From positions 1 through 35,126 of the IMG/VR virus record IMGVR_UViG_3300001844_000094: 35,126 nt of DNA. One strand, given 5' to 3'. This document shows, one piece after another, positions 9,159 to 31,030 of the stretch. Within the stretch, counting starts at the first letter, position 1. Each line of letters opens with the position of its first letter. The notes under the pieces were generated by a model that was given only the letters and a program-made list of their open reading frames with translations, was not told where the DNA came from and made no database searches. The stretch is from a virus. Made by a program: the position numbers and the translations under genes.

Positions 9159-9395
9159 ATGAAGTGGATAATTTTTGTTGTAGCGGTTTTAATGGTTGCT
9201 TGCACTTCAAGCCAGAGAAGCGATGAGGTGTTAAAAAAATCAGGATTTCACGATATTCAAATTGGTGGTTATGGGTGGTTCGCATGTGGAGAAGATTTGT
9301 TCAAAACAAAATTTACTGCGACCAATGTAAACGGTGAGAAGGTCGAAGGAACTGTTTGCTGTGGCATTCTGAAATCATGTACGGTAAGGTTTTAA
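9159..9395 (+). CDS. Small phage lipoprotein
   Basis: This is a 78-residue protein. A hydrophobic signal MKWIIFVVAVLMVAC ends in a lipobox-like VAC, so it is probably lipid-anchored. The mature part has GFHDIQIGGYGWFACGEDL, F.A.N.NG and an end VCCGILKSCTVRF, a pattern I recognise from widespread short phage and bacterial lipoproteins. The Cys residues may form disulfides in the periplasm. ATG 9159 follows caaagggg and gives a proper signal. An in-frame ATG at 9072, which would be TGATG-coupled to the methylase, would bury it. Possible roles include changing host surface properties. Confidence 0.75.
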   Translation: MKWIIFVVAVLMVACTSSQRSDEVLKKSGFHDIQIGGYGWFACGEDLFKTKFTATNVNGEKVEGTVCCGILKSCTVRF

Positions 9396-9423: not shown

Positions 9424-9612
9424 ATGAGCAACTGGTTACTATTTGATATTTGGTACGCATCAATGGGGTTTATAGTGGTGTTTGTATCGGCTATGGTTTT
9501 TCTTCAAGATGGGAAAAAATTAACGGCATGGGAAGTTTGGCTTGCGTGGATTGGCTGGTGGTATTTGGCTGGATACGCCATATACAAAGCGGTGAAAGGT
9601 GATGGTGAATAG
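9424..9612 (+). CDS. Small two-span membrane protein
   Basis: This is a 62-residue protein with two hydrophobic segments, roughly residues 8-27 (IWYASMGFIVVFVSAMVFL) and 38-55 (VWLAWIGWWYLAGYAIY), separated by a charged QDGKKLT turn. It is Trp-rich. The size and topology could suit a holin, but it is far from the endolysin and in the opposite unit. It begins after gtgggagaatag. Confidence 0.6.
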   Translation: MSNWLLFDIWYASMGFIVVFVSAMVFLQDGKKLTAWEVWLAWIGWWYLAGYAIYKAVKGDGE

Positions 9613-9816
9613 ATGGAAGATAAGTTTGCAGCTACGGTAACTATTTTTTCGCTTTGCATTGTTGTGTTCGCATTATTTATGAGTTTTAAGCGCAAAGACT
9701 CCCGCATCACCTACCTCGAAGGCGTTGTGAAAGAGCAGCAAATCAAAGCCCGTGCGGATTCCATCGCGCATGAGACACGGTTACACAACTGTTGGGCGGA
9801 GGTGGGGAAGAAATGA
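9613..9816 (+). CDS. Membrane-anchored coiled-coil protein (Rz-like shape)
   Basis: This is a 67-residue protein with an N-terminal membrane segment (TVTIFSLCIVVFALFMSF) followed by a charged helix (ITYLEGVVKEQQIKARADSIAHETRL). The shape is that of an inner-membrane spanin, and it overlaps the start of a predicted lipoprotein (ATGA), as spanin pairs often do. The partner here, however, is a 267-residue heparinase-like protein, and the endolysin is elsewhere, so a spanin role is only a possibility. Confidence 0.55.
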   Translation: MEDKFAATVTIFSLCIVVFALFMSFKRKDSRITYLEGVVKEQQIKARADSIAHETRLHNCWAEVGKK

Positions 9817-10616
9817 GATATTTGGCTGTGATTCTCCTATGTTCATGCGCCTTCCACCCCAACCTAAATACATCCTCATGGGCCACTACAGGCGACCTCG
9901 TAATCGCTGGCAAAGCGGATTGCCACACGATGGAACAGTTCGATGCGCTGAATGCCTTGCAGAAGTCCATCGGGGTTACGAATCTGACTTTGAGGCACGA
10001 AATCATTGAGGGAGTATGCAAACACGACACGGCACGGATTGAATCTGCACGGATGTCCGCAAAGAGGCTGATTCGGGACGGATATTGGGTGGAAAATTTC
10101 AGTTATGCTTTATATGTGCAATCCGCGTTCCTGTGGGCTGGGCTGCATGACTTGGACACCGTGATTGCGAAGTACGCTCGGCTGGTTGCTCCAAATGGGG
10201 AGGTGCCAATACCGGAGACGCGGCAAGTTTATTTACCTATTCCATCGGTCGTGTCAAACAACCTCGATTTCTTTTACATGGACTCCACATACCTTGTCCG
10301 GCAATGGCGCGGGGGATGGGTATTGATATGCATCGGGACACATCCGGGGCCGAAGTATAATCTTCATGCTCATGCCGACTTCGGGGCTTACTCGTATTGG
10401 CGTGATGGACGCTGGGTACACCGGATAGCCCCGTACACCGGATTCTCCCTCACCCGCTCCGAAGGAGACGGTCTTGGCCTCTCGTGGGACGTTTCGGCGT
10501 GGCGGTTTTCGGATAAGCCGAGAAGTGTTCTGTATGCCAACAAGGACAGCGTGGGGCTAACCTATGGCAATCAGGTGGAGCGGTTCTATTTTAATGATTC
10601 GCTGGAGGTGAAGTAA
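9813..10616 (+). CDS. Predicted lipoprotein with a heparinase II/III-like domain
   Basis: This is a 267-residue protein from ATG 9813 (ATGA overlap). MRYLAVILLCSC suggests a lipoprotein signal with Cys12 as the lipid site. Residues about 80-135 (RDGYWVENFSYALYVQSAF, then YARLVAPNGEVPIPET) resemble the end of the helical barrel of heparinase II/III-type polysaccharide lyases. YMDSTYLVRQ and HAHADFGAYSYWRDGRW (residues 185-201) match their C-terminal beta domain, whose HxHxD motif helps form the active or metal site. This would cleave acidic polysaccharide at the cell surface, or bind it. It is shorter than full lyases, so activity is uncertain. The family call is by eye. Confidence 0.6.
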   Translation: MRYLAVILLCSCAFHPNLNTSSWATTGDLVIAGKADCHTMEQFDALNALQKSIGVTNLTLRHEIIEGVCKHDTARIESARMSAKRLIRDGYWVENFSYALYVQSAFLWAGLHDLDTVIAKYARLVAPNGEVPIPETRQVYLPIPSVVSNNLDFFYMDSTYLVRQWRGGWVLICIGTHPGPKYNLHAHADFGAYSYWRDGRWVHRIAPYTGFSLTRSEGDGLGLSWDVSAWRFSDKPRSVLYANKDSVGLTYGNQVERFYFNDSLEVK

Positions 10617-10981
10617 TGGAAGAAATGCCAGTGATAACCATTGAGGATGTCTTGGGTGAACTTGGCTTCCGTGTGCGTTGGTCTGTGGTTTCACATTGGG
10701 CCGATTTTAAAGTATATCGGATTGTAGGGGGTTCTGATAAACCACTTTTTAGAAAAAAAGATTACCACTCATCAGATGAAAATGTTGAATCCATCAAAGA
10801 CGCTGATTTGTATTTGGATGGACACATAAAATGGGATGGGTGTTCAACTATTATTATTAAGGAAAACCATTTTTGCGGGGCAAGCGATTTCAAGTTGTTG
10901 CAGAATCTTATGAAATATCTTTATACCCGCGCTGCTACATTAATGGGTCGAGAAGATTTGGCTGATCCTTGGATACATTAA
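10616..10981 (+). CDS. Hypothetical protein with a conserved DGC/HFCG pattern
   Basis: This is a 121-residue protein; its ATG overlaps the previous stop (TAATG). It has an N-terminal TIEDVLGELGF, a central WDGCSTII and HFCGASDFKLLQNLMKYLYTRAATL. The Gly-Cys and Phe-Cys-Gly motifs followed by a helix recur in short phage proteins of unknown role. No signal peptide is seen, so it is probably cytoplasmic despite its envelope-gene neighbours. Confidence 0.6.
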   Translation: MEEMPVITIEDVLGELGFRVRWSVVSHWADFKVYRIVGGSDKPLFRKKDYHSSDENVESIKDADLYLDGHIKWDGCSTIIIKENHFCGASDFKLLQNLMKYLYTRAATLMGREDLADPWIH

Positions 10982-11006: not shown

Positions 11007-11228
11007 ATGAAAAAACTGATATTGATACTCGTACTGGTTGCTTTTGCCTTTGCGGGTGAAGCGTTCAGGCAGGGATACCGTGATGGATGGAAAGCTGGTA
11101 ATTGTTATGGAAGGGGTTACGGATGCTACCCGTCCTACCCGCCATACCCTCCCTATCCTGAATACGGGGAGGACAACTACATGGGCGGTTATAACAGAGG
11201 GTTTTTAGACGGGCTGAATGCACAATAA
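11007..11228 (+). CDS. Small secreted Tyr/Pro/Gly-rich protein
   Basis: This is a 73-residue protein with a clear signal peptide (MKKLILILVLVAFAFAGEA) and a strong ribosome site (aaggagg). The mature part has GYRDGWKAG, a Tyr/Pro run (PSYPPYPPYPEYG) and a second GYNRGFLDG, so two copies of a GY.(D/R)G.(K/L).G motif flank the Pro-Tyr stretch. It is probably exported to the periplasm or surface. It is the last gene of the rightward unit. Function unknown. Confidence 0.65.
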   Translation: MKKLILILVLVAFAFAGEAFRQGYRDGWKAGNCYGRGYGCYPSYPPYPPYPEYGEDNYMGGYNRGFLDGLNAQ

Positions 11229-11231
11229 GCA

Positions 11232-11261
11232 ATGAGGCCACCGGGTAACCAGTAGCCTCAT
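11232..11261. terminator. Hairpin between convergent units (weak terminator candidate)
   Basis: ATGAGGC (11232-11238) and GCCTCAT (11255-11261) form a perfect 7-base stem 3 bases after the rightward unit ends; the loop contains GGTAACC. No T-run follows on either strand, so it is not a standard intrinsic terminator, but its position between the convergent units suggests a 3'-end structure. The following 75 bases up to 11336 hold nothing I can assign. Confidence 0.35.
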
Positions 11262-12370: not shown

Positions 12371-13000
12371 TTACACCGCCACTGCTTGCTTTGTGTATGA
12401 AATCGTTTGATTAACCACGTATATTTGAGACACATCCGGGTCTGCCACAGCACTGAATGAACAGGTAACGTCAACTAAAAGACCGTCAACTAATGCCACT
12501 AATCCCGCATATCCACTGTTGGGAGTTGGGGTTAGCGCGGGGTCACTGAATATCACATTCGAGTTGTAGCATACATACGGAGCACCGGTTTCACCGGAAA
12601 GCATAAGGTCAAACGTAAGTATAGCCGAACCACTACTCGCACCACCCGCTCCAGCTATCGTGAAACTAAAAACTGTTGTCGTAGACCCATTAATCGTTAC
12701 AGTAGCAGCAATAAAAGCGTCTGTTGCAATCAAGCCGTAATAAATCGGAATGGATACCGATATTTTCCCGCCTCCGTTCAGCATTGAGATCGCAGAAGCG
12801 AGGCTTATCGTTTGTGACCCATGATAAACTTGGCCACTAATCCCATTTAGAAGCGACTGCGGATCGGTAGTCTCTGAATTGTCTATGCTCCCCTGTCCTT
12901 GAACGGAATAACAGAGGTTTGCGTTACCGCTTGATATTGCCAATTCGGACTCATCGCGAATAACCAATTTACCTTCATTATTTATGCCCTGTACTTTCAT
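12371..13000 (-). CDS. Tail appendage / fibre-like protein
   Basis: This is a 209-residue protein rich in Ser, Thr, Gly, Ala and Val with many short beta-like stretches (for example FSFTIAGAGGASSGSAILTF). It lacks catalytic motifs. It follows the larger fibre-like protein at 13000 with a one-base overlap and precedes the lysis genes, the usual place for a host-recognition or tail-decoration protein. The structural role is inferred from composition and position. Confidence 0.55.
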   Translation of the reverse strand: MKVQGINNEGKLVIRDESELAISSGNANLCYSVQGQGSIDNSETTDPQSLLNGISGQVYHGSQTISLASAISMLNGGGKISVSIPIYYGLIATDAFIAATVTINGSTTTVFSFTIAGAGGASSGSAILTFDLMLSGETGAPYVCYNSNVIFSDPALTPTPNSGYAGLVALVDGLLVDVTCSFSAVADPDVSQIYVVNQTISYTKQAVAV

Positions 13001-14436
13001 TACGCCCCCGCTGCCGGTGATAGAATCACCTGTGCCGTTAAGGTTTCAAAACTTCCCCCGAAATCTGTGTCTAAAACTTTGATGCTCACTCGCGGTATAA
13101 AATCCGCGTCTGCGAATTCATATTCCGTTTCCGATTCACGAATCACCGAATCCAAAACGCCCACTCCGTTTATGTTCAAAGTGGTTAAAGCCGTTGCGCT
13201 TGCGGTTTTGGTTATCACCGTGTCGAAGTTATGCACCGAACTGGCTTTGCATGTGATCTCGAAATCTTCTGTCGAATCGTCCCCCGATACCGGCATTCGC
13301 ATTGTAATTTTTCCGGTGTAGTCTGCACCTGTCAAATCATATTGGCCATTAGCGTAATCTAGTACCGCTTCCCAAAGAGCATCCGTGTCTGTGTCCCTAT
13401 CACCCGAAGATGCGTAAGCCTTTAGTCCCGGTGTACCATCGTAAGGTTTTGTCATGCGGCAATAAAAAACCGTATCATTTCCCGCCGCTAACCCTTCTAT
13501 GGATAGATTAGAAGCCCGTGCGCCCGTGTACTCAAATCCACCAAACGGTTGAATCGTGTGGATGAATGAAAGCAGCACCGTATCGAGCAGGTAAACTTTG
13601 ACTTCAAAGTTGTGCGGGATGGCCGAGCCTGTCGCCAATACCTGCATATTGATTTTCGCTTGCGCCCCTAGTGTCCAGAAATTACTGGGAACAGGCGCAC
13701 CAAAAACCCCGTAAGATCGGCACTCAAAAACAAAATTATAAGTCCCTTTCGGGTAAGTACCGGAGTCCGTTATGTCCTCAAGCGGAATCTCCAATCTCCC
13801 GGATGTCATATAAATTTGAACCGTTGTTCCGCCTGTGGTATCAGCGATTAATCCTTCGGCATCGTAGGTGTATTCTACTTGATCTACGTCACGGAATAGG
13901 TTAATCTTCCATGTCCCGTTATCCGGGTCAATCGAAATGCGACCATAAATCTTCTTGTCGCTTCCAACCTTACCAGCCGGGATTAAACCGATATGCCCGT
14001 CTTGAAAAACCGATGGGTCACCCGCAATTACATTGCCTGTGTCTTCAATCGTGAACGGTGAATAATACCCAAACCAAACCTGATCACGTTCCGCTCCACC
14101 GTCCAGTTCTTCGGAATGTTGTATTTGAGAGTAAACACCACCACCGCCGGGAAGCTGCGCCGCTTTGGTGAAAAGCAAATCAATCTGTCTTTGCAAATCC
14201 GTAGCCCTTGCATACAAATCGGCAGGGTTGAACGGAGTAGGGGTAGGCGTTCCATCTACTACCGGGACGTACGGCTCAACGTATGGAACAACATAAACCG
14301 TTCCGCTTGCGCTTCTAACCGTTGCTTTAGTGTCCAGTGCAAATGCAAATTTATCCGAAGTGCCAGCCAGTGCCGCTTCGGCTTCGGCTTGGGTTGCGTA
14401 GGTAAGTCCGCGAAAATCGACGCTTGTTGTACTCAT
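13000..14436 (-). CDS. Tail fibre / receptor-binding-like protein
   Basis: This is a 478-residue protein. The N-terminus (SVDFRGLTYATQAEAEAALAGT) resembles the attachment part of tail-tip fibres. It is followed by a Pro/Thr-rich hinge (VDGTPTPTPFNPADLY), a short helix (ATDLQRQIDLLFTKAAQL) that could trimerise, and a long beta-rich body. It overlaps the tail-tip gene by 4 bases. It probably binds the host receptor. No endosialidase, lyase or chaperone domain is recognisable. Confidence 0.6.
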   Translation of the reverse strand: MSTTSVDFRGLTYATQAEAEAALAGTSDKFAFALDTKATVRSASGTVYVVPYVEPYVPVVDGTPTPTPFNPADLYARATDLQRQIDLLFTKAAQLPGGGGVYSQIQHSEELDGGAERDQVWFGYYSPFTIEDTGNVIAGDPSVFQDGHIGLIPAGKVGSDKKIYGRISIDPDNGTWKINLFRDVDQVEYTYDAEGLIADTTGGTTVQIYMTSGRLEIPLEDITDSGTYPKGTYNFVFECRSYGVFGAPVPSNFWTLGAQAKINMQVLATGSAIPHNFEVKVYLLDTVLLSFIHTIQPFGGFEYTGARASNLSIEGLAAGNDTVFYCRMTKPYDGTPGLKAYASSGDRDTDTDALWEAVLDYANGQYDLTGADYTGKITMRMPVSGDDSTEDFEITCKASSVHNFDTVITKTASATALTTLNINGVGVLDSVIRESETEYEFADADFIPRVSIKVLDTDFGGSFETLTAQVILSPAAGA

Positions 14437-17400
14437 GCTATCACATCCTCGACTACGTTCTCATGCGTTGAGTAGTCTAATTTAACGTTAGAATTTGAAT
14501 CGGTGTCTTGCCATATCAAATATGTTTCATAAGGCAAATCCCATTCTCTCCGTGCAAATTTTAGTTCAATCAATCCGGTATCAGCGTTAATGGAACGGGA
14601 AAGAATTACATGGTAAAAACTGTTTGCGTCCGTTCTTACAATGTCGTTTATTCCCACCCTGTCCATTAGTTTCAATGCGAGATTAGCTTCATTAATCGGA
14701 AGCGTCCCCGTCATTTCCAACCATTGACCACCAAGCCAGTCGAGAATGAACATGGCTAAAGCATTCGGGCCGTCAAACGTGGTGAATAGCTTTGTTTCAA
14801 GCGTGTAGACGTTCTTTTGCCCAACCCGAAGATACGCGGCATGAGCCTTGTCCCATAGGTTTTTCGCCGATGCGTAATTCGGCGCACCAGTGACGTAAGT
14901 AGTCCACTTTGGAATTGATGAACGATGTCGTGTAATCATGGAGGTGGTCGAAATATCGAACGATCCGGTATATTCGCCCAGTTCAACCGTGTGAATTTCG
15001 TATGCCCCTGAAATGCGTTTGCTTATGTACTTACCGAAGTAGAAGGAGAAAAGCGAACTACCCCGTGAACTGATATAATCCCCCTCTGCCAATGGAGGGG
15101 TTAATGAATCCATGATAGAAGTCGTAAATTCAGCAATGACTTTCGTCCCCTGATATTTCAGGATGGTAGGGATATTCAGCAAATCAACATCCGCTCCAAG
15201 TGATGTGTATTTGAACGGGAAGCCATCCGAATCTTCCTCGTTAAAAGTACAAAGCCTTTGAGTATAATCCCCTAACCCTGCATTCCATCCGTATTTGATG
15301 TCAATCGAAGTATAAGCACGGTCAATTCCTGTTTTTTCCGCTTCACCGAGACTCAATAAATCCGATTCAGTTAATCGTCTAGAAACTGTGGAAGGGTCTG
15401 CCACGCCATAGTTCTCAATCCATATTGGACGGCGTTTCCCATTCTCACCCGAAACCATGCAGATAAAAGCGTGTTTACAAAGCAGTTGCAGCCAATCTAC
15501 TGTATTTTGCTTTTCATCCATTTGATAGTTGGCGTTCATGTAATAACGGCGGTTACTTGCGAGGTCAAAAGCCGCTTCGTCTATTACGTCCGGCCTCCCG
15601 TCACCTTTTCTAATCAAGTATTCCATTACATCTACGATATTTTGCACGGGCTGATCGGCAGTCTTGCGGGAGTTCCACGTATCCCCGAAAAATACCCCTC
15701 TAGTCCGGGTGTACATCTTGCCAGCGTATGGATCGCGTTGGCGGAAAAAAGCGATCTCACGGATATTGAATCCCCAGTTTAACTTAATCGGGTTGTATAG
15801 ATATGTCGGCCCCTGAACAGTAAAAACGATCCTGAATTTCGCTTTTATTTTCTTCACTCTCGCAACGGAATTTGCATCAGATAAGATTCCATCAAATATC
15901 TCAAGGTGTGTCTGTTGACCGGGATTCGCACCGCCGTCACCGTAAATCTGCGAACTGATACCATAATGCGTGGCCGTGAGGATGTTTGGAACTGGAAAAG
16001 AACCGTTTGAATAGAGAGCGTTGCGATTAGGATTGGAGATATTAGAATCACCATTAACATCAATCATTTTAAATTCCGGCGTAGTTGCGATGTCGCCACC
16101 GAAAATATCAATCAGAGAGTAACTAACGAACGCCTCATGTCTGCACCATTTGCGGTTCACTTTTGTCGGGTTTATAGGGTCGTTTGAATTTGTGAAAATG
16201 GTAGACATATCCATTGCCACAGAAGCGAACATCTTTTCCGAAGATTCAATGGAAAATTCGTTCGGCAAATCGAAAATTATTTCAAACCCTATGCTATATT
16301 GCCCTCCCGGCCCAAAGTATAATTCGTCACCACTGTTATAGTTATCCATCGGTAGAGGGTTATTAATCTCGAAATACGCGTTGTATAGTGACTCATGGTT
16401 GTTGTCCAAAACATTCGGCATATCCGCGCCTTCTGCTGTTGAAAGCAAAGACCCGGAATAAGTGTGAACGATTTTTCCAGTGCCGCCCGTATTCTGATAG
16501 ACAGCCTTTTTAAAATACTTCGGATTATTAACAGGTATTTTATACCCTTCCGGCCTTTGATACGCCGCATTATCACCCGAAGGGAGAATCTTATACGTTG
16601 CCATGTCCGGGTAAGCAGCATTTCCAACAGGTGACCAGCTTATAATCTTCGGGTCGATGTTCAGATATTCTTTTCTATCCGAATCCCACCCCAAAAGATT
16701 CATCCATTCACTACCACCAAAAACAGGCTTGGAGTACACCCTAATGTCAGTAAATTCGTACACCTCAAACCATGTGTAAGAGAATGCCCCTTGCGGGTTT
16801 GCTACCTCTGATCCATTTATCATTGCGCTAGTTCCAACAGGTGTAAAATCCGTTGTATCACTAATCTTTAGGGTATCTTTTAGAGTAATTGTTGTCGTTT
16901 TGGTAGTCGTATTCGTTGCGGAATTGTTAAATATCTCTGCCGGAGTTATTTCTAAATCAGTATTTCCCGTTCTAACCACACGAATCAGCTTACCCGCCAA
17001 AGCATTTCCGTTGAAATATTTGTCACCCGTTCGGAGCGAGAAAACGGTTTTACTCGTCACCTTCCCCGCACTCGTTAGGTTGTATTCTTTCCCATTCACC
17101 GCCGTGACAGGAATAACCCTAACCTGTTCGGTTAGTGGTATCGTTTCCGCGATCACATCACCAAAACACACCGGGATAGGTTTATCAATCGAATCGTCCG
17201 GTGCAAGCGGGAACCCCTGCTTTGTAATCGCTTCACGTGGGAAATCCTTATGTATCGCGATATACCCGTCCACCGCTTGAAGCGTGGTAACACCTTCACC
17301 ATGACTCACACCGTCAATTGTGAATGTCCCTACTAACTGGAACGTGCCATCTAAATCGAGATACACGAAACACGTTTTACCACCCAGCGTAATTCCTTTT

Positions 17401-17699
17401 GTTGTCAAGTATTCCGAAAAGGAACTCCCATTCCACGCCGGAGCCATGAGTAGCACTTGAATATCAGACCCGGACAGCGTTTGATACCCGCCACCCTGCG
17501 AAATATCCGCTACCTCGTCCACACTACCCGGAGCCTTGAGGATATTCGTTATCCAAGTCTCATCTGCTATCCCGTCCGGGCCGGAGCCGGTTGTATAACC
17601 TGTATTCCCTGTGATCCAGTGGAAGTATGAATCATAAAGCCCTGCCATTAAATCATCCGAAATATCGAACGGGCCAATCTTAACAGCAAACTGAATCAT
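14433..17699 (-). CDS. Large tail-tip (hub / J-like) protein
   Basis: This 1088-residue protein is the largest in the window. It sits directly after the distal tail protein, in the position of the tail hub or central tip protein. The N-terminal 200 residues (MIQFAVKIGPFDISDD, a TFTIDGVSHGEGVTTLQAVDG segment and DDSIDKPIPVCFGDV) look like the hub domains of phage tail-tip proteins. The middle is beta-rich and Asn/Tyr-rich, and the C-terminus has DLPYETYLIWQD. It should close the tail and trigger adsorption. No cell-wall hydrolase motif is visible. Confidence 0.7.
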   Translation of the reverse strand: MIQFAVKIGPFDISDDLMAGLYDSYFHWITGNTGYTTGSGPDGIADETWITNILKAPGSVDEVADISQGGGYQTLSGSDIQVLLMAPAWNGSSFSEYLTTKGITLGGKTCFVYLDLDGTFQLVGTFTIDGVSHGEGVTTLQAVDGYIAIHKDFPREAITKQGFPLAPDDSIDKPIPVCFGDVIAETIPLTEQVRVIPVTAVNGKEYNLTSAGKVTSKTVFSLRTGDKYFNGNALAGKLIRVVRTGNTDLEITPAEIFNNSATNTTTKTTTITLKDTLKISDTTDFTPVGTSAMINGSEVANPQGAFSYTWFEVYEFTDIRVYSKPVFGGSEWMNLLGWDSDRKEYLNIDPKIISWSPVGNAAYPDMATYKILPSGDNAAYQRPEGYKIPVNNPKYFKKAVYQNTGGTGKIVHTYSGSLLSTAEGADMPNVLDNNHESLYNAYFEINNPLPMDNYNSGDELYFGPGGQYSIGFEIIFDLPNEFSIESSEKMFASVAMDMSTIFTNSNDPINPTKVNRKWCRHEAFVSYSLIDIFGGDIATTPEFKMIDVNGDSNISNPNRNALYSNGSFPVPNILTATHYGISSQIYGDGGANPGQQTHLEIFDGILSDANSVARVKKIKAKFRIVFTVQGPTYLYNPIKLNWGFNIREIAFFRQRDPYAGKMYTRTRGVFFGDTWNSRKTADQPVQNIVDVMEYLIRKGDGRPDVIDEAAFDLASNRRYYMNANYQMDEKQNTVDWLQLLCKHAFICMVSGENGKRRPIWIENYGVADPSTVSRRLTESDLLSLGEAEKTGIDRAYTSIDIKYGWNAGLGDYTQRLCTFNEEDSDGFPFKYTSLGADVDLLNIPTILKYQGTKVIAEFTTSIMDSLTPPLAEGDYISSRGSSLFSFYFGKYISKRISGAYEIHTVELGEYTGSFDISTTSMITRHRSSIPKWTTYVTGAPNYASAKNLWDKAHAAYLRVGQKNVYTLETKLFTTFDGPNALAMFILDWLGGQWLEMTGTLPINEANLALKLMDRVGINDIVRTDANSFYHVILSRSINADTGLIELKFARREWDLPYETYLIWQDTDSNSNVKLDYSTHENVVEDVIA

Positions 17700-21497: not shown

Positions 21498-22481
21498 TTA
21501 GTCAGTATCAAAAGGTGTTAAAATGACATTCAACCGAGACTCATTCGGATCGGTCGTGACCAAATCCGCCTCGTATGCCCATTCCATCGGTGACTTGTCG
21601 TTACCCTTGATTTTTTTAATCATCGCGTGCGGTGCTTGGATATGCAAATGAGCAATCCATGTCGTTTCCGTTGGAATAGTAGCCGTGTGCAGGTCAACCT
21701 GTCGAATGACTCCATTCTCGAAATCATCCACATCCTGATTCGTATTTGAAATCAGATTGACTTCCTTGTTCATCTTCAAAGTGGGTTTCCGGTCTATAAT
21801 GACCATGCGCAAAATACCCGTTGAATTTGAAGGGTCTTTCAGCCCGGCAATCGACAACCCCGGATTCACCGTGATTGAACTCCAGCGTATATCCTGCCCG
21901 TCTGCCTGACTTATTCCGCCCTTCCAAACGAGCGGCTTCGTCACATTCGCCGGAGCCGTGTATGCAGGTACGCTGCCGCTTGCAATCGTGGAAAAGCTGT
22001 AAAGCGCACCGGTTAGTTTGCAGTTTAACACCGCCTGTTCCCCGGACTTCGCTTCGATGCTCCAATCATTCAAGCACCCGCGCATCTTCGCTACGATATG
22101 GTAACCATCCACCACAGATGGCTGGACATACCAAGCCGTGATCGTGTCACAGGTAAGGTCTACGCCTTTATCTTCGTAGTAAAACTGACCGTCCGTTGGA
22201 TAACCGGACAACAAGAACTGCGCCGGTAATTCATCCGTATGAGTCGTTGAGACTACGATGTTGTGCTTGAACGTAACCTCTCCAAGCTCTTCGCCCTTGA
22301 TGTCCACGTTTTGCGTGTATCCACCCGAAGCGAACTTATCTTCAATCTTTTGAATTTGGTCTTGGAAGCTCACATCCGAAATAGCGATGGCAATCGTTCC
22401 CGAAGACATATCCGCAGCCGTTCCCGGCGTGGTCTCCTTCTTAATCACCAAGTATCTCATTTTACCGTCAATTGGATTCAT
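21498..22481 (-). CDS. Major tail tube protein
   Basis: This is a 327-residue protein immediately upstream of the chaperone pair. It starts MNPIDGKMRYLVIKKETTPGTAADM, the usual opening of long tail tube proteins, followed by beta-rich repeats and an SIEAKSGEQAVLNCKLTGALY strand pair. A ring of this protein would form the tail tube. A good ribosome site (aaaggggg) precedes ATG 22481. It is somewhat larger than many tube proteins and may carry an extra surface domain in the C-terminal half. Confidence 0.78.
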   Translation of the reverse strand: MNPIDGKMRYLVIKKETTPGTAADMSSGTIAIAISDVSFQDQIQKIEDKFASGGYTQNVDIKGEELGEVTFKHNIVVSTTHTDELPAQFLLSGYPTDGQFYYEDKGVDLTCDTITAWYVQPSVVDGYHIVAKMRGCLNDWSIEAKSGEQAVLNCKLTGALYSFSTIASGSVPAYTAPANVTKPLVWKGGISQADGQDIRWSSITVNPGLSIAGLKDPSNSTGILRMVIIDRKPTLKMNKEVNLISNTNQDVDDFENGVIRQVDLHTATIPTETTWIAHLHIQAPHAMIKKIKGNDKSPMEWAYEADLVTTDPNESRLNVILTPFDTD

Positions 22482-30292: not shown

Positions 30293-30988
30293 TCATTTTG
30301 GGTATTCCATTTGAAGGATTCCCGGCCTTTGCTTTAGGTTGGCAATTCTGGCTTCAAGTTCAATGTCCCGCGCCGATTTTTTTTGGGTAATAGTCTTTGG
30401 ATTTACTGTTAGTTTGTCCAAAAGCCATTTTTGAGCCTCTTCTTTTGTTTTGAACCTTTTAGCAAAAGCACACGGGACACCTTGTGTCTTTCGCATTGCA
30501 TCACGGGGACGGCCTACGATTACATCAGATTCACCGTTAGGAATATAACAGGCATAAACCCGCGCTCTTCCTGCTTCTTTTCTGGCTTTGATTGACTCTT
30601 TGGTTCGCCGGATTTTTCGCGGCTCAACCTTGAGAGAATGCGGCACGGCACGTTTGCACCATGAGATAGCTTTAGAAGTTCCTTTGGCGTTTAGAATGCG
30701 AGACAGCGGGAAAGAATCGACTTCTTCGTTTTGAATGCGGATTACTACCAACCCTTTGAAAGTCATCCATTGGTCGCGCTCTATGTCTTTGAGCATTTGG
30801 GCATCGTTATTGTGGTAACCGCCATCGATTTCAACAACAACACCGAGAGAAGGGATTAAAAAATCCGCGATGTACCGCCCAAGAATTACTTGGGAGCTAA
30901 CTTCTATGGAAGCATCGAGAAGCCGCGCATGAAAACGTGCCTCGGCGGCGGTTGGCTTTTGCCTCATCCGGTTTGCGTATTCTTGCAT
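30293..30988 (-). CDS. DUF559-type (Vsr-like) endonuclease with a C-terminal extra domain
   Basis: From ATG 30988 this is a 231-residue protein; TTG 30997 and TTG 31003 are further candidates near GAGGG. Residues 1-100 (RMRQKPTAAEARFHARLL, YIADFLIPSLGVVVEIDG and RDQWMTFKGLVVIRIQNEEV) match DUF559 domains of the PD-(D/E)XK / very-short-patch-repair-like nucleases; DF, EIDG and the later E/K residues form the expected site. The remaining part (RARVYACYIPNGESDVIVG and FAKRFKTKEEAQKWLLDKL) resembles the small RNase H1 N-terminal or viroplasmin-type nucleic-acid binding domain, which I consider tentative. It heads the late unit. Confidence 0.75.
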   Translation of the reverse strand: MQEYANRMRQKPTAAEARFHARLLDASIEVSSQVILGRYIADFLIPSLGVVVEIDGGYHNNDAQMLKDIERDQWMTFKGLVVIRIQNEEVDSFPLSRILNAKGTSKAISWCKRAVPHSLKVEPRKIRRTKESIKARKEAGRARVYACYIPNGESDVIVGRPRDAMRKTQGVPCAFAKRFKTKEEAQKWLLDKLTVNPKTITQKKSARDIELEARIANLKQRPGILQMEYPK

Positions 30989-31030
30989 TTTCGACAAGTA
31001 CAAACCCTCGCGGTTGAAATGCTATTCCCC

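What the first reader, a model, noticed from the sequence alone, without database searches (positions are those of the whole stretch)
9813..10616. Phage lipoprotein with a heparinase II/III-like catalytic pattern
The order DGYWVENFSYALYVQS, then LVAPNGEVPIPE, YMDSTYLVRQ and HAHADFGAYSYWRDGRW is what is seen toward the C-terminal end of heparinase II/III-type polysaccharide lyases, including the HxHxD motif. It has a lipoprotein signal and is expressed with the early genes rather than as a tail protein. A lipid-anchored polysaccharide lyase-like protein made during infection would be a new way for a phage to remodel the host envelope or block superinfecting phages.
Basis: partly seen in the sequence, partly recalled or inferred. 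Interest (0 to 1): 0.65.

Follow-up and report, generated by a model that had tools for sequence, protein, structure and literature searches.

The report
Orphan phage protein, heparinase-like motif
A bacterial virus carries an orphan gene for a small, probably exported protein; one short stretch looks like part of the active site of sugar-chain-cutting enzymes called heparinases, but most of the parts such an enzyme needs could not be found, so it is probably not a working heparinase.

Summary
The ORF (window 9813-10616, 267 aa) is real and tightly packed in a same-strand block of a 35 kb tailed phage, and the quoted motifs are there. As a single sequence it matches nothing convincing in Pfam, NCBIfam, PHROGs, PDB, or phage, plasmid, viral-contig and genome collections. 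Against a profile I built from 90 heparinase II/III-type proteins it scores 14.1 bits (P about 5e-7), above all of 5,000 shuffles, but only through about 45 residues (157-202) around HAHAD. The DG..E and P(D/N)G motifs score no better than 14% of shuffles. The downstream strand with the second metal Asp/Asn, second catalytic Tyr and third metal His gives no match: 0 of 10 family-conserved columns after HAHAD are kept. An unrelated frame with HAHND scores 17.8 bits against the short motif model (this protein: 20.8), so the motif alone is not diagnostic. There is no room for the N-terminal toroid with its catalytic Asn. The lipobox rule I recalled is not met. Verdict: an orphan, probably exported accessory phage protein with a local heparinase-like HxHxD segment. 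Heparinase membership fails on tested features; lyase activity is unlikely; remote descent from that fold is possible but unproven.

The parts
9813..10616 (+). 267-aa orphan CDS (P0001), probably exported
   Evidence: Open frame, GGAGG 10 nt upstream, ATGA and TAATG junctions; no convincing homologue found by single-sequence searches
9813..9872 (+). short N-terminal hydrophobic stretch, possible export signal; strict lipobox not met
   Evidence: Hydropathy and pattern test; the lipobox pattern is recalled
10077..10112 (+). DGYWVENFSYAL, proposed DG..E..Y motif; not above chance
   Evidence: Sub-profile -0.8 bits; 715 of 5,000 shuffles as good
10191..10217 (+). PNGEVPIPE, proposed P(D/N)GE motif; not above chance on its own
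   Evidence: Sub-profile -0.1 bits; 693 of 5,000 shuffles as good; included in the hhalign alignment of residues 111-203
10281..10418 (+). heparinase-like segment, residues 157-202, around HAHAD
   Evidence: Full profile 14.1 bits; sub-profile 20.8 bits against a best of 10.9 in 5,000 shuffles
10365..10379 (+). HAHAD (residues 185-189), equivalent of base His, metal His and metal Asp in HxHxD lyases
   Evidence: Position; roles from passages of PMC12088678, placed on this motif by comparing the numbering in the table with the PDB alignments
9613..9816 (+). 67-aa frame with an N-terminal hydrophobic stretch, overlapping the start of the CDS by ATGA
   Evidence: no Pfam match above cut-off; no phage match
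9159..9395 (+). 78-aa neighbour with a clear lipobox (LMVAC), PHROG 902, unknown function
10616..10981 (+). 121-aa next gene, PHROG 33479, unknown function
   Evidence: no near relative found

Best explanation
It is a genuine, fast-evolving accessory gene of a tailed phage, made with the replication-side genes and encoding a small protein that is probably carried to or across the inner membrane. It most likely acts in the host envelope by binding rather than by cutting sugar chains, for example as an envelope-acting accessory or superinfection-exclusion protein. The HAHAD stretch lies on a beta-rich segment resembling the first strands of the heparinase II/III C-terminal domain, either as a much eroded relic of such a domain or by convergence; in neither case is the catalytic set of a known PL12/15/17/21/33/35/39 lyase present. 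Shown: the gene, its layout, the local profile match, the absence of the other motifs. Inferred: export, the timing of expression, the envelope role, the lack of lyase activity.
For: Gene layout and neighbours, several of them small hydrophobic or secreted-looking proteins. Local profile match to heparinases. Missing catalytic and metal positions and missing toroid. A single-sequence AlphaFold model puts helices before residue 125 and strands after 159, the order of the lyase fold, but at mean pLDDT 32.9, so this is weak.
Against: No homologue of any kind, so no conservation test was possible. Export rests on a short hydrophobic stretch only. No direct evidence for an envelope function. A hidden, diverged catalytic set cannot be excluded.
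Confidence: 0.5

Rival explanations
1. The HAHAD stretch is a chance likeness; the protein has an unrelated fold and function.
For: Pfam gives no family at E up to 10. A frame of 575 codons without other lyase motifs (L025, HAHND; its look of an O-antigen ligase is recalled, not tested) reaches 17.8 bits on the short motif profile and 8.4 on the full one. 38 of 793 genomes gave single-sequence matches at E up to 0.1 and none of these matches was a heparinase. None of 10 conserved columns after HAHAD is kept. With some 25,000 families and dozens of frames implicitly compared, P about 5e-7 is not overwhelming.
Against: Score on the full profile beats all 7,000 shuffles (2,000,000) and all non-heparinase frames of a 1,624-frame set (best 8.4). 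The GP..N.HAHAD context also matches, not HAHAD alone. In one genome chosen for its heparinase, that heparinase was the only match reported for the lone protein at E up to 1 (E 0.14).
Confidence: 0.33
2. A working, minimal heparinase II/III-type lyase made during infection.
For: HxHxD kept exactly; weak ordered likeness to the DG..E and P(D/N)GE motifs in a forced full-length alignment.
Against: Second metal ligand, second Tyr, third metal His and catalytic Asn not found; alanine mutants of each of the four metal ligands of GAGase II were completely or substantially inactive (passages of PMC12088678). Too short for the toroid.
Confidence: 0.07
3. The 67-aa membrane protein and this protein are a spanin-like pair (inner-membrane and outer-membrane parts) acting in lysis.
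For: Overlapping genes, first with one hydrophobic stretch and a charged helix, second with a possible export signal.
Against: The endolysin-like gene (M15 peptidase) lies in the other strand's block; 267 aa is long for an outer spanin (recalled) and the lipobox rule fails.
Confidence: 0.06

Closest known systems
Heparinase II/III-like C-terminal domain, Pfam PF07940 (PL12, PL15, PL17, PL21 and relatives)
   Same: GP..N.HAHAD segment followed by a predicted beta hairpin; order of the DG..E, P(D/N)G, DS.Y and HxHxD motifs
   Different: No match to the Pfam model; no downstream D/N.G..Y, R..R or HN motifs; about half the length
Heparinase II/III N-terminal toroid, Pfam PF16889
   Same: Some predicted helices before residue 125
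   Different: No room for the toroid; no NNH motif; DG..E motif not above chance
T5 Llp, a phage superinfection-exclusion lipoprotein (abstract of PMC9586334)
   Same: A small envelope protein made by a tailed phage is the closest functional idea
   Different: No sequence comparison was made; a lipobox is not clearly present here

Membership tests
Heparinase II/III-type lyases (PF07940/PF16889) | Significant match to the family model | tested here: not met
   0 Pfam families at E up to 10; PF07940 0 of 1 records, the control rang in 3 of 14 genomes; only a profile I built myself matches, over about 45 residues
Heparinase II/III-type lyases (PF07940/PF16889) | HxHxD motif (base His, metal His, metal Asp) | tested here: met
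   HAHAD, residues 185-189
Heparinase II/III-type lyases (PF07940/PF16889) | Catalytic Tyr in DG..E.SP.Y(H) | tested here: inconclusive
   DGYWVENFSYALY present, but not above shuffles (715 of 5,000 as good), and MAFFT places it elsewhere
Heparinase II/III-type lyases (PF07940/PF16889) | Second metal Asp (Asn in 40 of 90 members) and following G..Y | tested here: not met
   Sub-profile c2 no hit; ungapped positions hold I205, P207 and F211 (P207, F211; I205 read)
Heparinase II/III-type lyases (PF07940/PF16889) | Third metal His in the HN motif (His in 89 of 90) | tested here: not met
   Sub-profile c3 no hit; D226 at the ungapped position
Heparinase II/III-type lyases (PF07940/PF16889) | N-terminal alpha/alpha toroid with catalytic Asn | tested here: not met
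   267 aa in all; no NNH motif at the expected distance (sequence; family position); roles
Heparinase II/III-type lyases (PF07940/PF16889) | Lyase fold in three dimensions | tested here: inconclusive
   Single-sequence model pLDDT 32.9. Model made with 30 heparinases in the alignment pLDDT 61.9, pTM 0.56, best PDB match HepC 4mmh E 9.4e-3, TMq 0.42, but biased by construction
Heparinase II/III-type lyases (PF07940/PF16889) | Beta-elimination activity | not testable with these tools
   Needs protein
Bacterial lipoproteins | Lipobox with Cys about 15-35 from the start | tested here: not met
   Recalled PROSITE-type pattern gives no match from ATG or TTG start; Cys at 10 and 12

The most novel reading that the evidence does not exclude
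A minimal, phage-only version of the heparinase II/III fold that keeps the HxHxD hand but has replaced the toroid and the other metal ligands, exported during infection to bind or trim the host's acidic surface glycans.
Probability: 0.1. Interest if true: 0.6.

Novelty: new member of a known kind. Interest (0 to 1): 0.2.

Why it matters
If the fold link were real it would be, as far as the searches here show, an unusual phage use of a lyase domain. Known phage depolymerases are mostly tail parts (recalled). As it stands it is a caution that an HxHxD motif alone can be matched nearly as well by an unrelated protein, and one more orphan in an envelope-gene cluster.

Tried and rejected
Searched for homologues: viral contigs with the protein and with alignments that include or surround it, phages and plasmids by tblastn, genome contigs, three related phage contigs found through the terminase, 398 and 395 genomes of two phyla: nothing convincing. 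I did not test which of those 793 genomes carry heparinases. DNA patterns for HAHADFGA and YN.HAHAD in viral contigs gave 1 and 3 stretches, none lyase-like. PHROG 13202 touches residues 159-196 at E 0.38, E 0.0036 when only this record is searched; none of 8 heparinases tested matches it, so it was not pursued. An isolated-phage search with a heparinase-like peptide gave 5 unannotated gut contigs, each over part of the query only. The metallo-beta-lactamase HxHxDH idea was dropped by eye (no strand before the motif; not tested). The model built with heparinases in the alignment was not counted as evidence, since the alignment supplies the fold. Papers: no paper on a phage heparinase II/III appeared in the listings; that is all the claim covers. 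Seen of each: PMC12088678, PMC11848413 and PMC13370021 passages; PMC9586334 abstract and outline; the rest listings only.

Selection to keep in mind: of 32 plasmid records with hits I used 10; of 512 genome relatives the tool kept 80. The genome search was led by L009, which I had put first because it looked closest to the query by eye, so the 90-protein profile leans a little towards it. The short c1 profile was cut after seeing the match, so its 20.8 bits are post hoc.

Full report
What is there. The window is a 35,126-base virus record of a tailed phage: DnaB-like helicase, DNA methyltransferases and Erf-like annealing protein on the + strand; terminase, portal, major head protein, tape measure and endolysin on the - strand. 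The finding is a 267-aa frame at 9813-10616 +. It starts inside the stop of a 67-aa frame (ATGA), its stop overlaps the next start (TAATG), and GGAGG lies 10 nt upstream, so it is very probably translated.

Homologues. As a single sequence the protein matches no Pfam or NCBIfam family at E up to 10, one PHROG at E 0.38, and in the PDB only two envelope glycoproteins at E 0.17-0.19. No relative was found in viral contigs, phages or genome contigs; plasmids gave only four Azospirillum places at E 2 to 10. Three related phage contigs found through the terminase, 59% identical there, gave no match to it; two of the three are short fragments. In 793 genomes of two phyla, 38 had a match at E up to 0.1, fewer than the roughly 79 expected if E-values were exact; scoring all 40 fetched loci (those 38 and 2) against the heparinase profile, only L102 is a heparinase, and it came, from a genome chosen because it carries one.

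Heparinase test. With a typed seed I collected 10 plasmid proteins annotated as heparinase II/III or alginate lyase and, led by four of them, 80 loci from genomes. hhalign of the lone protein against the 10-protein profile gives a score of 42.6 to 43.0, P about 4e-5, residues 111-203 with HAHAD on HxHAD; the best of 300 shuffles is 29.6. Against 90 proteins: hhalign P 1e-5 over residues 154-202, hmmsearch 14.1 bits, P about 5e-7, residues 157-202. Controls on the 90-protein profile: best of 2,000 shuffles 10.4, best of 1,501 reversed frames 8.1, best of 486 other frames of this phage and relatives 5.5; 0 of 5,000 further shuffles reach 14.1; in 1,624 frames of 120-600 codons from fetched loci, 50 reach 60 bits and the best of the rest is 8.4.

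Where the match is and is not. Cutting the profile into pieces: the HxHAD piece scores 20.8 bits (best of 5,000 shuffles 10.9); the DG..E.SP.Y piece -0.8 (715 of 5,000 shuffles as good); the P(D/N)G piece -0.1 (693 of 5,000); the two pieces after HAHAD give no hit at all. In an ungapped comparison anchored on HAHAD, 26 columns within 60 residues are at least 85% conserved in the 90 proteins. This protein keeps the 4 in HAHAD, and G and P just before it if one residue is deleted, plus at most two others further upstream (one with and one without that deletion); 0 of 10 columns after HAHAD are kept. A warning came: a 575-codon frame in L025 with HAHNDFLE, which I take from memory to look like an O-antigen ligase, scores 17.8 bits on the HxHAD piece and 8.4 (best domain 7.8) on the full profile.

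Function from known lyases. In GAGase II (PL35) the base is His401, the acid Tyr246, with Asn191/192 helping; His403, Asp405, Asp421 and His457 surround the metal, and alanine mutants of each were completely or substantially inactive (passages of PMC12088678). Residue 401 to 405 is the HxHxD motif and 421 lies 20 residues after its first His. PL33 and relatives add a second Tyr, 26 residues after that His (Tyr470 and His444, passages of PMC11848413). In the phage protein the positions at +20 and +26 are I205 and F211; no HN motif and no NNH motif is found (I205 and the lack of NNH read from the sequence). Gapped alignments could move these assignments, since the region has no reliable alignment.

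Structure. Alone, AlphaFold2 gives pLDDT 32.9, with helices up to 125 and strands from 159. With 30 heparinases in the alignment it gives 61.9 and pTM 0.56, best PDB match HepC 4mmh at E 9.4e-3 and TMq 0.42, none at E up to 0.001. That second model borrows its fold from the alignment and is not independent.

Export. A hydrophobic stretch at about residues 3-14 is compatible with a short export signal, but a recalled lipobox rule is not met, unlike in the neighbour at 9159-9395. PADLOC gives nothing for this protein.

Judgement. A real orphan gene; a local likeness to heparinases that is statistically notable yet confined and partly post hoc; a failed membership test; lyase activity unlikely. 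I put descent from a heparinase-type domain, including eroded forms, at roughly 0.4 and chance likeness or convergence somewhat higher; 'exported accessory phage protein without lyase activity' is my best single statement at 0.5.

Noticed in passing
window 9159-9395 +: 78-aa protein of PHROG 902 (unknown function) with a clear lipobox (LMVAC); a better lipoprotein candidate than the one reported.
   Followed up: partly
window 11007-11228 +: 73-aa secreted-looking protein rich in Tyr, Pro and Gly, last gene of the + block; a 13-pair hairpin lies just beyond it at 11232-11261, where the two gene blocks converge.
   Followed up: no
window 30293-31003 -: Protein with weak matches to HNH endonuclease PHROG 559, and to DpdF (E 1.4e-6, 50 residues only) and a methyl-directed restriction enzyme in PADLOC, beside the terminase genes.
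   Followed up: no
L025, first frame of the locus (575 codons): A frame with HAHNDFLE scores 17.8 bits on the heparinase HxHAD sub-profile, a useful false positive for motif hunting.
   Followed up: partly
window 13000-14436, 14433-17699, 21498-22481 (-): Large virion-side proteins with no PHROG match at E up to 0.01.
   Followed up: no
window 9424-9816 +: Two small hydrophobic frames (62 and 67 aa) directly before the reported gene; the second has one hydrophobic stretch and a charged tail, a possible spanin-like or accessory membrane protein.
   Followed up: partly
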